From assembly GCF_001613205.1 (NCBI RefSeq), contig NZ_BDBX01000039.1:62001-126000 (forward strand): DNA of 64,000 nucleotides, given 5' to 3'. Source of the DNA: Nocardia sienata NBRC 100364. GTDB lineage: Bacteria; Actinomycetota; Actinomycetes; Mycobacteriales; Mycobacteriaceae. The notes beneath the pieces were generated by a model that saw only the letters and a program-made list of their open reading frames with translations, did not search any database and was not told the DNA's origin. The stretch's first letter is position 1. Every line of letters starts with the position of its first letter. Positions 8,540-12,400 of this stretch are shown piece by piece. The position numbers were made by a program, and so were the translations under genes.

Positions 8540-8713
8540 TCAGGATCCGTCGCCGCGCGACGGCCGCGGGGAGCGCCCGGCCTGCTCCAGCGCGCGCCGC
8601 AGGGCGAACTCGATCTGCGCGTTGACGCTGCGCAGATCGTCGGCCGCCCATTTGGCGATCGCGTCGTGGATCGCGGGGTCGAGCCGGAGCAGGACCTTCT
8701 TGCGCTCGGCCAT
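8540..8713 (-). CDS. small ribbon-helix-helix (Arc/CopG-like) DNA-binding protein
   Basis: A 57-residue product, beginning MAERKKVLLRLDPAIHDAI and ending with a charged tail. The pattern KKVLLRLDP (beta strand), then IHDAIAKWAADD (helix) and SVNAQIEFALRRAL (helix) is that of the MetJ/Arc/CopG ribbon-helix-helix fold, which binds DNA as a dimer through the N-terminal strand. Its ATG overlaps the TGA of the upstream SPFH gene as TGATG, so translation is coupled. The obvious target is the palindrome at 9611-9634 in front of the operon. No toxin-like partner is present, so the membrane protein is its only operon mate. Confidence 0.8.
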   Translation of the reverse strand: MAERKKVLLRLDPAIHDAIAKWAADDLRSVNAQIEFALRRALEQAGRSPRPSRGDGS

Positions 8714-9634: not shown

Positions 9635-9727
9635 GCATGAAGGTCGCCGGGCCGGGTGCGCACGATACGAATCGCGAACCGCCGGCCCCGCGGCCGGACA
9701 CCGCCGATTGCCTGCGACCATGTGCGG

Positions 9728-10813
9728 ATGGAACGGACAGCACTGGGTGAGCGGCTCCGCCTCGGCGTGATCGAGGGTGACGGGATCGGGCCCGAAGTGG
9801 TGGGTTCGGCGCGGCGGGTGGTCGACGAGGCACTGTCCGCCGCCGGCGCGGCCGAGGTCGACTGGGTCCCGTTGCCGATGGGCCGGCGGGCCATCGACGA
9901 ATTCGGCACCGCCCTACCGGAATCAACCCTGACCGGTCTGCTCGACACCGACGGCTGGATCCTCGGCCCGCACGACAATGCCTCCTATCCCCCGCAGCAC
10001 CGCATCGCCCCCGGCGGTGCGATCCGGCGCCATTTCGGCCTGTACGCCAATATCCGGCCCGTGAAAGCATTTCCCGGCGTCGCCGCGCTCGCGCCGGATA
10101 TCGATCTGGTGGTCGTCCGCGAGAACAGCGAGGGTTTCTATGCCGACCGGAACATGGCGGTCGGCTCCGGGGAGTTCTGTCCCACCCCGGATATCGCGCT
10201 GTCGGTCGGCCTGGTGACCCGCGCGGCCTCCGAACGGATCGCGCACGAGGCCTTCCGGCTGGCCGCCGCCCGGCGCGGCCGGGTGACCATCGTGCACAAA
10301 GCGAATGTGCTGCCGCTGAGCATGGGATTGTTCCGCGATACCTGCTATGCCGTGGCGCGCGAGTACCCCGGTGTGACAGTGACCGACGAGCACGTCGACG
10401 CGGCCGCCGCGCATCTGGTTCGCGCCCCCGGCGATTTCGATGTGCTGGTCACCGAGAATCTGTTCGGCGATATCCTGTCCGACCTGGCCGCACAACTCGG
10501 CGGCTCACTGGGTACGGCCGCCTCTCTCAACTGCTCGGCCGACCGGGCGATGGCGCAGGCCGTCCACGGCGCGGCCCCCGATCTGGCCGGGCACAACCGC
10601 GCCGACCCGGTGGCTGCGCAACTGTCCGCCGCCATGTTGCTGCGCTGGCTCGCCGACCGGCGCGACCAGCCGGTGCTCGCCCGGGCAGCGGAGCGGATCG
10701 AACACGCGGTGGCGGCGACCTTCGCCGCCGGTATCGCGACAGCCGATCTGGGTGGTCTGGCGTCGACCAGCGAATTCACCGAACAGGTCACCGCCCGGGT
10801 CCACTTCCGATAG
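9728..10813 (+). CDS. isocitrate/isopropylmalate dehydrogenase family protein
   Basis: A 361-residue NAD(P)-dependent beta-decarboxylating dehydrogenase. It begins with LGVIEGDGIGPEVV, has the RENSEGFYADR loop in place of the usual ENTEG(L/I)Y, the catalytic lysine in VHKANVLPLS, and the metal-binding aspartates in ENLFGDILSDLAAQLGGSLG. The family covers isopropylmalate, isocitrate, homoisocitrate and tartrate dehydrogenases; the segment GPHDNASYPPQ after residue 80 is unlike typical LeuB, so I leave the substrate open. ATG 9728 is preferred, with GTG 9722 possible. It stands alone, divergent from the SPFH operon. Confidence 0.85.
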   Translation: MERTALGERLRLGVIEGDGIGPEVVGSARRVVDEALSAAGAAEVDWVPLPMGRRAIDEFGTALPESTLTGLLDTDGWILGPHDNASYPPQHRIAPGGAIRRHFGLYANIRPVKAFPGVAALAPDIDLVVVRENSEGFYADRNMAVGSGEFCPTPDIALSVGLVTRAASERIAHEAFRLAAARRGRVTIVHKANVLPLSMGLFRDTCYAVAREYPGVTVTDEHVDAAAAHLVRAPGDFDVLVTENLFGDILSDLAAQLGGSLGTAASLNCSADRAMAQAVHGAAPDLAGHNRADPVAAQLSAAMLLRWLADRRDQPVLARAAERIEHAVAATFAAGIATADLGGLASTSEFTEQVTARVHFR

Positions 10814-11039
10814 CGACCGCCACACCGTCCACCGCGAGCCGCAGCCAAGATACGGGCGTGCCACCGCGGGTCCCGAAGACTCCGCCAGCGCGCCGTGCCG
10901 GGAGGCGCGGCGCGGCCGAAGCGCCCCGTCGGCCCACCCGCATATGGTGAAATTCCGCTCCGAGAATGTCATTGTGGTTCGAAGAGTCCGGTGCCGGACG
11001 ACGAACCGCGCGAGAATAAACAGCAGGACAAAGCCGAAT
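10814..11039. other. intergenic region before a two-gene unit
   Basis: These 226 bases hold no gene I can support. They contain the probable promoter for the next two genes, in a slightly less GC-rich stretch (aatgtcattgtggttcgaag and gagaataaacagcaggac) close to the 11040 start. Confidence 0.4.
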
Positions 11040-11393
11040 ATGCCGCAGCAGAACCCCGAACCGACCGTGGTCGCCGTCTACGAGTTGGTGGCGACGCGGT
11101 ACCGGCGAGTTGCGGAATTCCGTCTCGCGGCAACGGGCACCGTGGCATTGACGCTCGCCGAAGCCGGTGGATGTCCGATGGCGCGACGGTGGTTGCGCGA
11201 CGGCCTCCGCGTTCCGGGCACCTCGCAGACCGTCACCGCGGAGGACGGGACCGCCTTCATGCGCGCTCTGCTGCTGCCGCGCCCGCTCAGATATAGCCGG
11301 GTGGTCGACGAAAGCCCCGGCCCCGCCGCTGCCGAAGTCCGGCGGCGACGATCGGCCGGTTCCGGGGAACCGCCGCGCCGGAGCCGAACGTAG
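11040..11393 (+). CDS. small protein preceding a kinase-like gene
   Basis: A 117-residue protein I do not recognise. It starts MPQQNPEPTVVAVYELVATRYRR, has a compact alpha/beta-looking core (RLAATGTVALTLAE, ARRWLRDGLRVPG, VTAEDGTAFMRALL) and a basic, disordered tail rich in arginine. It ends five bases before the next start, so the two are an operon. The fixed pairing suggests that it is a partner, substrate or regulator of the kinase-like protein downstream, by analogy with HipB/HipA-type pairs, though it shows no helix-turn-helix. ATG 11040 follows an AGCAGGAC ribosome-site-like stretch. Confidence 0.7.
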   Translation: MPQQNPEPTVVAVYELVATRYRRVAEFRLAATGTVALTLAEAGGCPMARRWLRDGLRVPGTSQTVTAEDGTAFMRALLLPRPLRYSRVVDESPGPAAAEVRRRRSAGSGEPPRRSRT

Positions 11394-11397
11394 TGCA

Positions 11398-12381
11398 ATG
11401 AATGCGTTGTCCCCGTGGCGCGGCATCACCGACGAGACACTGTTGCGCCTGACCAATCTCGCCGGCCGGGTGAGTAAATTCCGGTCCGGACTGATTCGCG
11501 ACTACAGTTACCACCTCGACGTACTGATCGAAGAGCTGACCACCAGCGACCGCGATTTCGAACTGCCGATGGAGTGGCGTTCCGTGGCGGAGCCGGGCGC
11601 GCGCGGAGCCGTGCCGCCCAGCGGCCGCTTTCCGGCCTACACACCGAGCCGCGCCGAACACCACGTCGCGACGCGGCGCCTGGTGATCGACGAAGAACTC
11701 TCGGAGACACTGCCCAGCAGCGCGAACGGTATCTATGTCACACGCGATCAAGACGGCGTCCTGTACGTGTACAAACCAGACGATCTGGAGATGTACGACG
11801 GCCTGAACTGGCTGCCGCACGTGTCCGGCCAGTTGGCGCGCAGAGAGGTCGCGGGGTTCCGGATATTCGAACTGTTGCAGGCGCCGCGGGTGCCACCGAC
11901 GGCACTCGTCGACGGGCCACGCGGGCCGGGCATGGCGCAACTGTTCGTCCCGATGAAGGCCAGTAAGGATGTCGGCCGCTACCCGGTGCTGCAACAGCAG
12001 CAGGCCGCGATAGGTCATTTCGTGGCCGGTAGCCACGACGGGAACGAGACGAACTTCCGGCCGGCTTACGACGGGAACATCGAGAGCCATCGTCCCGATG
12101 ACGATCTGGTCATCTTCGATCTGGGGCAGTCCGGACCCGAATCGCCCGACCCGCGACGCGGCGATCAGGACTTCGCCATCATCTCCCCGTTCATCGAGCG
12201 TTGGGCCGGCGAGCAGTTGGATCCTGACCTGCTGCGAACGGTCCGGGCGATCCCACCCGAGCGGCTGGGTAGCTGCCTCGAAGACCTCCGGTTCAGTGAC
12301 AGCGCTATCGACAACGACCTGGACCGATTGGAGTATGTGCAGCGTACCGGCACCGTCACCGCCGATTGGCAGCCATCCTGA
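11398..12381 (+). CDS. divergent PI3K/HipA-like kinase-fold protein
   Basis: A 327-residue protein with a scattered but complete kinase-like motif set. The N-terminal lobe has NGIYVTRDQDGVLYVYKP with a candidate ATP-binding lysine at residue 126. The C-terminal lobe has HDGNETN, with candidate catalytic Asp214, Asn216 and Asn219, then VIFDLGQS with a DFG-like Asp241. The order and spacing (D-x-N-x-x-N, then D-x-G about 22 residues later) resemble HipA and the PI3/PI4-kinase-like proteins of actinobacteria rather than Hanks-type kinases. Residues 1-105 are an extra N-terminal region of unknown role. It is coupled to the small upstream gene and converges on an ABC transporter gene with a 19-base gap. 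Family assignment is inferred from motifs only. Confidence 0.6.
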   Translation: MNALSPWRGITDETLLRLTNLAGRVSKFRSGLIRDYSYHLDVLIEELTTSDRDFELPMEWRSVAEPGARGAVPPSGRFPAYTPSRAEHHVATRRLVIDEELSETLPSSANGIYVTRDQDGVLYVYKPDDLEMYDGLNWLPHVSGQLARREVAGFRIFELLQAPRVPPTALVDGPRGPGMAQLFVPMKASKDVGRYPVLQQQQAAIGHFVAGSHDGNETNFRPAYDGNIESHRPDDDLVIFDLGQSGPESPDPRRGDQDFAIISPFIERWAGEQLDPDLLRTVRAIPPERLGSCLEDLRFSDSAIDNDLDRLEYVQRTGTVTADWQPS

Positions 12382-12400
12382 CGCCCCGGCCGGACGGTCG

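What the first reader, a model, noticed from the sequence alone, without database searches (positions are those of the whole stretch)
11040..12381. Two-gene unit with a divergent PI3K/HipA-like kinase and a small unknown partner
The second protein shows a candidate ATP lysine (Lys126), a D-x-N-x-x-N catalytic motif (Asp214/Asn216/Asn219) and a DFG-like motif (Asp241), in the order seen in HipA and PI3/PI4-kinase-like bacterial proteins, plus a novel N-terminal region of about 105 residues. The small first protein is encoded five bases upstream. The unit may be a toxin-antitoxin-like or phospho-signalling pair not yet described.
Basis: inference. Interest (0 to 1): 0.66.

Follow-up and report, generated by a model that had tools for sequence, protein, structure and literature searches.

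The report
Putative kinase toxin with small antidote
A two-gene unit in a Nocardia-like genome appears to encode an unusual kinase and a small partner protein resembling the inhibitor half of the HipA persistence toxin; relatives of the same pair sit on proteins that look like secreted bacterial weapons, so it may be a toxin-antidote pair.

Summary
Window 11040-11393 (A, 117 aa) and 11398-12381 (B, 327 aa) form a two-gene unit. B has a confident predicted kinase fold, closest to PI4-kinase II, then CtkA/Fam20, then HipT/HipA. Asp214, Asn219 and Asp241 are kept in 55 of 55 relatives, Lys126 in 51. A has no known family; its predicted fold best matches HipA N-subdomain 1, which is what the split antitoxin HipS is, but weakly (Z 4.2; profile P 0.015).

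The pair recurs: 33 of 50 examined B loci have A alongside, in both orders, and A and B co-vary. The window copy is an islet of about 1.6 kb, absent in two close relatives. In another family B is the C-terminal domain of a WXG100 (type VII secretion-like) protein followed by A; in Nocardia, B domains lie in giant secretion-like proteins, some followed by A.

Best reading: a kinase toxin held by a HipS-like inhibitor, used as a chromosomal toxin-antitoxin pair and as an effector-immunity module. Against: 17 of 50 B loci lack A, lone B proteins keep the active site, A's match is weak, and toxicity and substrate are untested. New variant of a known kind.

The parts
11040..11393 (+). Gene A: 117-aa small partner, predicted HipS-like (HipA N-subdomain-1-like) fold; putative antitoxin/immunity protein
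   Evidence: no Pfam, NCBIfam, PADLOC or PHROG family
11398..12381 (+). Gene B: 327-aa PI4K-II/HipA-superfamily kinase; putative toxin/effector
11575..12378 (+). Kinase domain of B (residues ~60-327; ten-residue blocks from residue 61 on have mean pLDDT 83-98)
11719..11721 (+). Ser108 in the loop before the first kinase strand: S/T in 27 of 30 A-paired rows, S in 5 of 12 unpaired, S/T in 3 of 13 giant-embedded
   Evidence: the comparison with HipA Ser150/HipT Ser57 is inference
11773..11775 (+). Lys126, candidate ATP lysine (K in 51 of 55, R in 4)
12037..12039 (+). Asp214, candidate catalytic aspartate (55 of 55)
   Evidence: aligns with the HipA catalytic motif
12052..12054 (+). Asn219, catalytic-loop asparagine (55 of 55)
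12118..12120 (+). Asp241, DFG-like metal-binding aspartate (55 of 55)
10814..12389 (.). Approximate islet carrying A-B (about 1.6 kb), absent in G229 and G703 whose flanking genes are otherwise continuous

Best explanation
A-B is a split-HipA-like kinase pair. B is an ATP-dependent kinase of the PI4K-II/Fam20/HipA superfamily that harms the cell in which it is free, most likely by phosphorylating a protein. A folds like HipA N-subdomain 1 (HipS), binds over B's nucleotide-binding loop and blocks ATP binding, so B stays silent in cells that carry A. In the window the pair is a chromosomal toxin-antitoxin islet; the same kinase-partner module is used elsewhere as the C-terminal domain of type VII secretion-like proteins, with A as the immunity protein. 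Shown here: gene pair, recurrence, covariation, predicted kinase fold and conserved active site, islet presence/absence, and effector architecture in relatives. Inferred: HipS homology of A (weak evidence), kinase activity, toxicity, blocking mechanism, substrate.
For: Kinase fold and invariant catalytic residues. Profile alignment of B with HipA cores puts Asp214/Asn219/Asp241 on the HipA motifs (P 0.0023). A: best VIA match is HipA 3tpt, Z 4.2, 69 residues, aligned to HipA 2-105, with HipA entries also at ranks 3, 4 and 19 of the 50 shown; hhalign of 40 A proteins against 24 HipA N-domains P 0.015, colinear, score reached by 1 of 300 column shuffles in local mode. A adjacent to B at 33 of 50 examined loci, 26 A-first and 7 B-first; both orders exist in published hipBST and hipJS (PMC8262856, sections read). 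A and B distances correlate: r 0.88 (30 pairs), 0.54 (16 dereplicated), 0 of 5000 permutations as high. Islet absent in G229 and G703, whose nearest flanking proteins are 94-99% identical to the window's (permease 85-88%). G482: WXG100_2 N-terminus plus PI3_PI4_kinase C-terminus, EspC-like gene upstream, overlapping A downstream. G673: giant protein ends in a B domain, A 22 bases downstream.
Against: 17 of 50 examined B loci have no A beside them, and lone B proteins keep the catalytic residues (12 of 12); some genomes with B have no detected A at all (G764, G716). 31 of 68 Nocardia A matches have no listed B nearby (coordinates, read by hand). A's Foldseek search found nothing (best E 0.42), its Z of 4.2 is within the range that can be chance, the global-mode profile score was reached by 21 of 300 shuffles, and no HipA was found by sequence in the PDB. 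No HTH (HipB) gene flanks the pair. Only 5 of about 20 genomes with giant-embedded B domains have A in the same locus. B's nearest solved fold is a lipid kinase, not HipT.
Confidence: 0.58

Rival explanations
1. Phospho-signalling pair: B is a non-toxic regulatory kinase and A its substrate or adaptor; the link to secretion proteins is domain shuffling only.
For: Lone, intact B genes exist with no A in the genome; SCO1664-like kinases are widespread in actinobacteria and my search showed no described toxic role; A and B co-vary as any interacting pair would.
Against: Patchy islet distribution with empty sites, split B genes at 5 loci (G690a, G065b, G703, G659, one copy in G729), orphan A genes, and B at the C-terminus of a WXG100 protein with A just downstream look like toxin-antidote biology.
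Confidence: 0.2
2. Lipid-kinase effector: B phosphorylates phosphatidylinositol, in neighbouring actinobacteria or in eukaryotic predators or hosts, and A is its chaperone or inhibitor.
For: Best fold match is PI4K-II alpha/beta (Foldseek E 1.4e-7, VIA Z 18.9); PF00454 matches 36 of 55 relatives; secretion-linked relatives. That Nocardia membranes contain phosphatidylinositol is recalled.
Against: Fold does not give substrate: Fam20, CtkA and HipT, known as protein kinases, are in the same list; the window copy has no recognised secretion domain.
Confidence: 0.15
3. Decaying genomic remnant: standalone pairs are leftovers of effector cassettes with no present function.
For: Split B genes in several genomes; scattered positions.
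Against: Catalytic residues invariant in 55 of 55; both window genes are intact; A and B co-vary over deep divergence.
Confidence: 0.07

Closest known systems
HipBST / HipST toxin-antitoxin systems (E. coli O127, Legionella; PMC10627512 and PMC9325769, passages read)
   Same: Kinase core without the HipA N-subdomain plus a separate small protein with a (predicted) HipA-N fold, usually encoded just upstream; D-x-x-x-x-N and D-x-G motifs; conserved Ser/Thr near the nucleotide loop in A-paired relatives.
   Different: B has no HipA_C Pfam match and is closer in fold to PI4K-II; no HipB gene; A's similarity to HipS is not detectable by HMMER.
hipJS modules (PMC8262856, sections read)
   Same: Two genes only, a short kinase with a HipS-type partner; kinase-first order occurs in 7 of 33 pairs here.
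   Different: Window order is A-first; the kinase is not of the HipA sequence family.
SCO1664 family (TIGR03843)
   Same: Closest named family of B; all 55 relatives hit the model at E <= 0.01.
   Different: B scores 44.1 bits against a cut-off of 172.4, over the first half of the profile.
Tox-Peptide Kinase of polymorphic toxins (PMC3482391, passages read)
   Same: A kinase used as a toxin domain, with YKP and DxHxEN motifs resembling those here.
   Different: Described there as lantibiotic-synthetase-type, in PVC systems of Firmicutes, with no immunity protein listed in the passage read.

Membership tests
HipT / HipBST toxin-antitoxin | Kinase belongs to the HipA family by sequence (HipA_C) | tested here: not met
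   No Pfam family for B up to E 10. Profile comparison with 19 HipA cores is only weakly positive, P 0.0023.
HipT / HipBST toxin-antitoxin | Core kinase motifs in HipA order (ATP lysine, catalytic D/N, metal D) | tested here: met
HipT / HipBST toxin-antitoxin | Adjacent HipS-like (HipA N-subdomain 1) protein | tested here: inconclusive
   VIA Z 4.2 to HipA 2-105; hhalign P 0.015; 1 of 300 local and 21 of 300 global shuffles as high; nothing by Foldseek or HMMER.
HipT / HipBST toxin-antitoxin | HipB helix-turn-helix gene in the operon | tested here: not met
   Neighbours are a dehydrogenase gene and an ABC transporter operon.
HipT / HipBST toxin-antitoxin | Autophosphorylated Ser/Thr at the nucleotide loop | tested here: inconclusive
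   Ser108 column is S/T in 27 of 30 A-paired rows; phosphorylation not testable.
HipT / HipBST toxin-antitoxin | Toxicity relieved by the small protein | not testable with these tools
   No experiment possible.
SCO1664 family (TIGR03843) | Score above the curated cut-off 172.4 bits | tested here: not met
   44.1 bits.
PI3_PI4_kinase (PF00454) | Pfam match of the window protein | tested here: not met
   None for B, though 36 of 55 rows match at E <= 0.01.
Type VII secretion polymorphic toxin with immunity gene | Secretion (WXG100-like) domain in the same protein | tested here: not met
   Window B: none. Met in relatives: G482 and giant G751.
Type VII secretion polymorphic toxin with immunity gene | Small gene directly next to the toxin domain | tested here: met
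   Window A 4 bases upstream; A directly downstream in G482 and G673.

The most novel reading that the evidence does not exclude
A HipS-HipT-like toxin-antitoxin pair has been adopted as the warhead and immunity pair of type VII secretion effectors: PI4K-like kinases are delivered to neighbours by WXG100 proteins up to thousands of residues long, a HipS-like protein protects the producer, and the same cassette lives in chromosomes as a two-gene addiction or defence islet.
Probability: 0.4. Interest if true: 0.85.

Novelty: new variant of a known kind. Interest (0 to 1): 0.6.

Why it matters
It would link two fields that are treated apart: HipA-type persistence kinases and secreted polymorphic toxins. 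It would give a new kind of kinase toxin, a HipS-like inhibitor family without any database name, and a compact pair in which the HipS blocking mechanism can be tested on a PI4K-type active site. My literature searches (listings, plus the passages and sections named elsewhere) showed no description of this pair; most subscription papers are not held, so this is not proof of absence.

Tried and rejected
Family libraries gave nothing for A: Pfam up to E 10 on the window protein, only scattered chance-level hits on 40 relatives, NCBIfam, PADLOC, PHROGs. Sequence search of the PDB with A's profile gave only chance-level hits; Foldseek gave none below E 0.4. The first larger alignment of A held one wrong-strand row (L034); it was replaced and not used. 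A strict toxin-antitoxin reading was weakened because lone, intact B genes exist. Consensus promoter and terminator scans found nothing, which says little in a high-GC actinobacterium. SidJ, named in the finding, was not tested. In the VIA list for B the absence of a family is not evidence. The first Pfam scan of 5,000 residues of the G744 giant found no family, so its WXG100-like start is my reading of the sequence only.

Rows dropped: in the tree G065b was dropped because its best piece is short (63 rows kept, one of them the SCO1664-like protein of G000); in the covariation test 30 of 33 pairs were used (G065b, G712c34 and G748c6 left out for short B matches). The 50 B loci are not all B loci: about ten weaker, unpaired ones (for example G755 C1:6513371, G741 C120, G764 C104 and C192) were not fetched, so the paired fraction is an upper figure. 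The count of A genes with B nearby (32 next to a separate B, 5 near giants, 31 neither, of 68) is read by hand from the coordinates; one search's list was cut at E about 8e-12. The figure of about 20 genomes with giant-embedded B domains is likewise read (stop-to-stop frames above 2,500 codons).

The tree joins two long branches (G244b, G771), so their places are unsure; the giant-embedded kinases group together (13 of 13, 97/89).

Full report
WHAT IS THERE. The window lies in a 6.8-Mb actinobacterial genome (G000:C39:62001-126000). Its genus-mates include a genome with a contig of the same length as a named Nocardia carnea record (72,926 bases), so the genus is most likely Nocardia. Gene A (11040-11393, 117 aa) and gene B (11398-12381, 327 aa) are on the + strand, 4 bases apart. 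They lie between a dehydrogenase gene (9656-10813) and an ABC-transporter operon on the other strand (from 12401); these two names are my reading of the sequences.

GENE B. Pfam gives nothing; NCBIfam gives a partial, sub-threshold match to the SCO1664 family (44.1 bits, cut-off 172.4). In an alignment of 55 rows, Asp214, Asn219, Asp241, Arg149 and Pro166 are invariant, and Lys126 is K in 51 and R in 4. Of the 55, 36 match PI3_PI4_kinase and 13 match Fam20C at E <= 0.01, and all 55 match TIGR03843. The AlphaFold model has mean pLDDT 87.2, above 80 in every ten-residue block from residue 61 on and below 60 before it. Best solved folds: PI4K-II alpha and beta (Foldseek E 1.4e-7; VIA Z 18.9 over 226 residues, rmsd 3.1), then CtkA (Z 14.1), Fam20 (Z about 14), Legionella HipT (Z 12.4 and 12.2 over 206 and 190 residues) and HipA (Z 10.6) (that 7wcf is HipT is from PMC10627512, passages). 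A profile comparison with 19 HipA cores aligns the catalytic D-x-x-x-x-N and the second D motif (P 0.0023). B is thus an apparently intact kinase of the PI4K/HipA superfamily, but not a member of the HipA family by sequence.

GENE A. No family is known. Among 40 rows Ala25, Phe27, Ala48 and Gly55 are invariant, and Asp90/Glu91 near the end of the conserved part are at least 90%. The model (pLDDT 85.0, pTM 0.71) runs beta-beta-beta-alpha-alpha-beta plus a C-terminal helix in a low-confidence tail. Foldseek finds nothing. VIA puts HipA first (3tpt, Z 4.2, 69 residues, rmsd 3.4), with three more HipA entries at ranks 3, 4 and 19, all aligned to HipA residues up to about 109, its N-subdomain 1 (that 3hzi at rank 19 is HipA is recalled). 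That domain is what HipS is in the split systems (PMC8262856, sections read; PMC9325769, passages). Profile-profile comparison with 24 HipA N-domains from actinobacteria (alignment) gives P 0.015 with a colinear alignment; 1 of 300 column-shuffled profiles scores as high locally, 21 of 300 globally. Each line is weak; together with the identity of the neighbour and the gene order I take HipS-likeness of A as probable, not shown.

RECURRENCE. In 150 Nocardia genomes, A is found in 51 (68 matches), and in only 3 of 394 genomes spread over the class (G000, G065 and G482 of another family). In the same 150 genomes 120 have a B-profile match at E <= 1e-10, many of them probably ordinary SCO1664-like proteins. 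Reading coordinates, 32 of 68 A genes lie next to a separate B, 5 lie near giant genes that hold B domains, and 31 have no listed B nearby. From the B side, 33 of 50 loci examined have A adjacent, 26 A-first and 7 B-first; 17 do not. A and B distances correlate (r 0.88 for 30 pairs; 0.54 for 16 dereplicated pairs; 0 of 5000 permutations as high), and in G690, which has two pairs, each A and its B share nearest relatives, whereas for the divergent second pair of G244 they do not. In a tree of 63 B sequences the paired state needs 11 changes against 20.9 in shuffles, and the giant-embedded domains form one group (97/89). Ser108, in the loop before the first kinase strand, is S or T in 27 of 30 paired rows, S in 5 of 12 unpaired rows and S or T in 3 of 13 giant-embedded rows. 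That position resembles the autophosphorylated serine near the Gly-rich loop of HipA and HipT (PMC10627512, passages); the equivalence is my inference, and relatedness of the rows is not corrected for.

SITE. In G229 and G703 the methyltransferase, SPFH, dehydrogenase and ABC ATPase proteins are 94-99% identical to the window's (permease 85-88%) and the dehydrogenase and ATPase genes are only a few dozen bases apart: the pair is absent. N. carnea-like G688, G690 and G244 carry a 61-66% identical pair at the same site (in G690 the dehydrogenase was not found there, and the G244 contig ends inside B), and G742 carries one two genes away, A 58% and B 47%. In G712, G742 and G750 the same gap holds an oxidase-like gene instead (the name is my reading). 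So this is a variable islet at a site that gains and loses genes.

SECRETION LINK. In G482, B is the last part of a 625-aa protein with an N-terminal WXG100_2 domain (E 6e-9) and a C-terminal PI3_PI4_kinase match (E 3.7e-10); an EspC-like gene precedes it (weak, E 0.003) and the A gene overlaps its end. In G673 a giant protein ends in a B domain and A follows 22 bases later, with an EspC-like gene close by (E 1e-4). In G751 a 9,193-codon gene with WXG100_2, alpha/beta hydrolase, GDPD, PI3_PI4_kinase and RHS matches holds five B domains, and A lies about 0.6 kb downstream. In G748 and G768 an A domain forms the end of a 243-residue protein encoded directly after such a giant. About 20 Nocardia genomes have B domains in frames above 2,500 codons, but only 5 have A in the same locus. 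Where A is present this is the arrangement of polymorphic toxins with immunity genes.

READING. The most economical account is a kinase toxin and its HipS-like inhibitor, present both as a two-gene chromosomal module and as an effector-immunity module. In HipST the small protein shifts the P-loop and blocks ATP (PMC9325769 and PMC10627512, passages). I propose the same for A on B. Shown: genes, recurrence, covariation, predicted folds, conserved active site, islet, secretion architecture in relatives. Not shown: activity, toxicity, binding, substrate, secretion. The main results against it are the lone B genes with intact active sites, the orphan A genes, and the weakness of the A-HipS match. 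Rivals are a non-toxic signalling pair, a lipid-kinase effector, and a relic.

NOVELTY. The searches named under Why it matters showed no account of this pair. The nearest published ideas are HipBST/hipJS modules and the 'Tox-Peptide Kinase' of polymorphic toxins (PMC3482391, passages). I file it as a new variant of a known kind.

Noticed in passing
G744 C2, joined L260-L265 at 23391-82814: An open frame of 19,807 codons (59 kb) with two B-profile matches (one weak), about 22 kb from a gene with FtsK/SpoIIIE domains (EccC-like by my reading), and a second frame of 5,767 codons upstream. Other Nocardia show stop-to-stop frames of 11,000-17,000 codons holding B domains.
   Followed up: partly
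L043, L044, L047, L039; and L034, L035, L037, L045: Orphan A genes sit at two positions shared between species: one beside a lipoprotein-like and a permease-like gene, one (shared only in part for L037 and L045) beside an MFS-like gene. They may be maintained orphan antidotes.
   Followed up: partly
L054, L161, L174, L176, L177: B genes split by stops or frameshifts in five genomes, in L054 and L161 next to an intact A. Sequencing error is not excluded.
   Followed up: no
L172 4302-5333: A gene that looks like a tyrosine recombinase lies beside a B gene that has no A, while its near relative in G229 is paired.
   Followed up: no
window 10814-12400 and homologous gaps in G712, G742, G750: The gap between the dehydrogenase and ABC genes behaves like an insertion hot spot: A-B pair, oxidase-like gene, or nothing.
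   Followed up: partly
window 8540-8713: Small 57-aa frame on the - strand that looks like an Arc/ribbon-helix-helix protein (recalled resemblance, no call).
   Followed up: no
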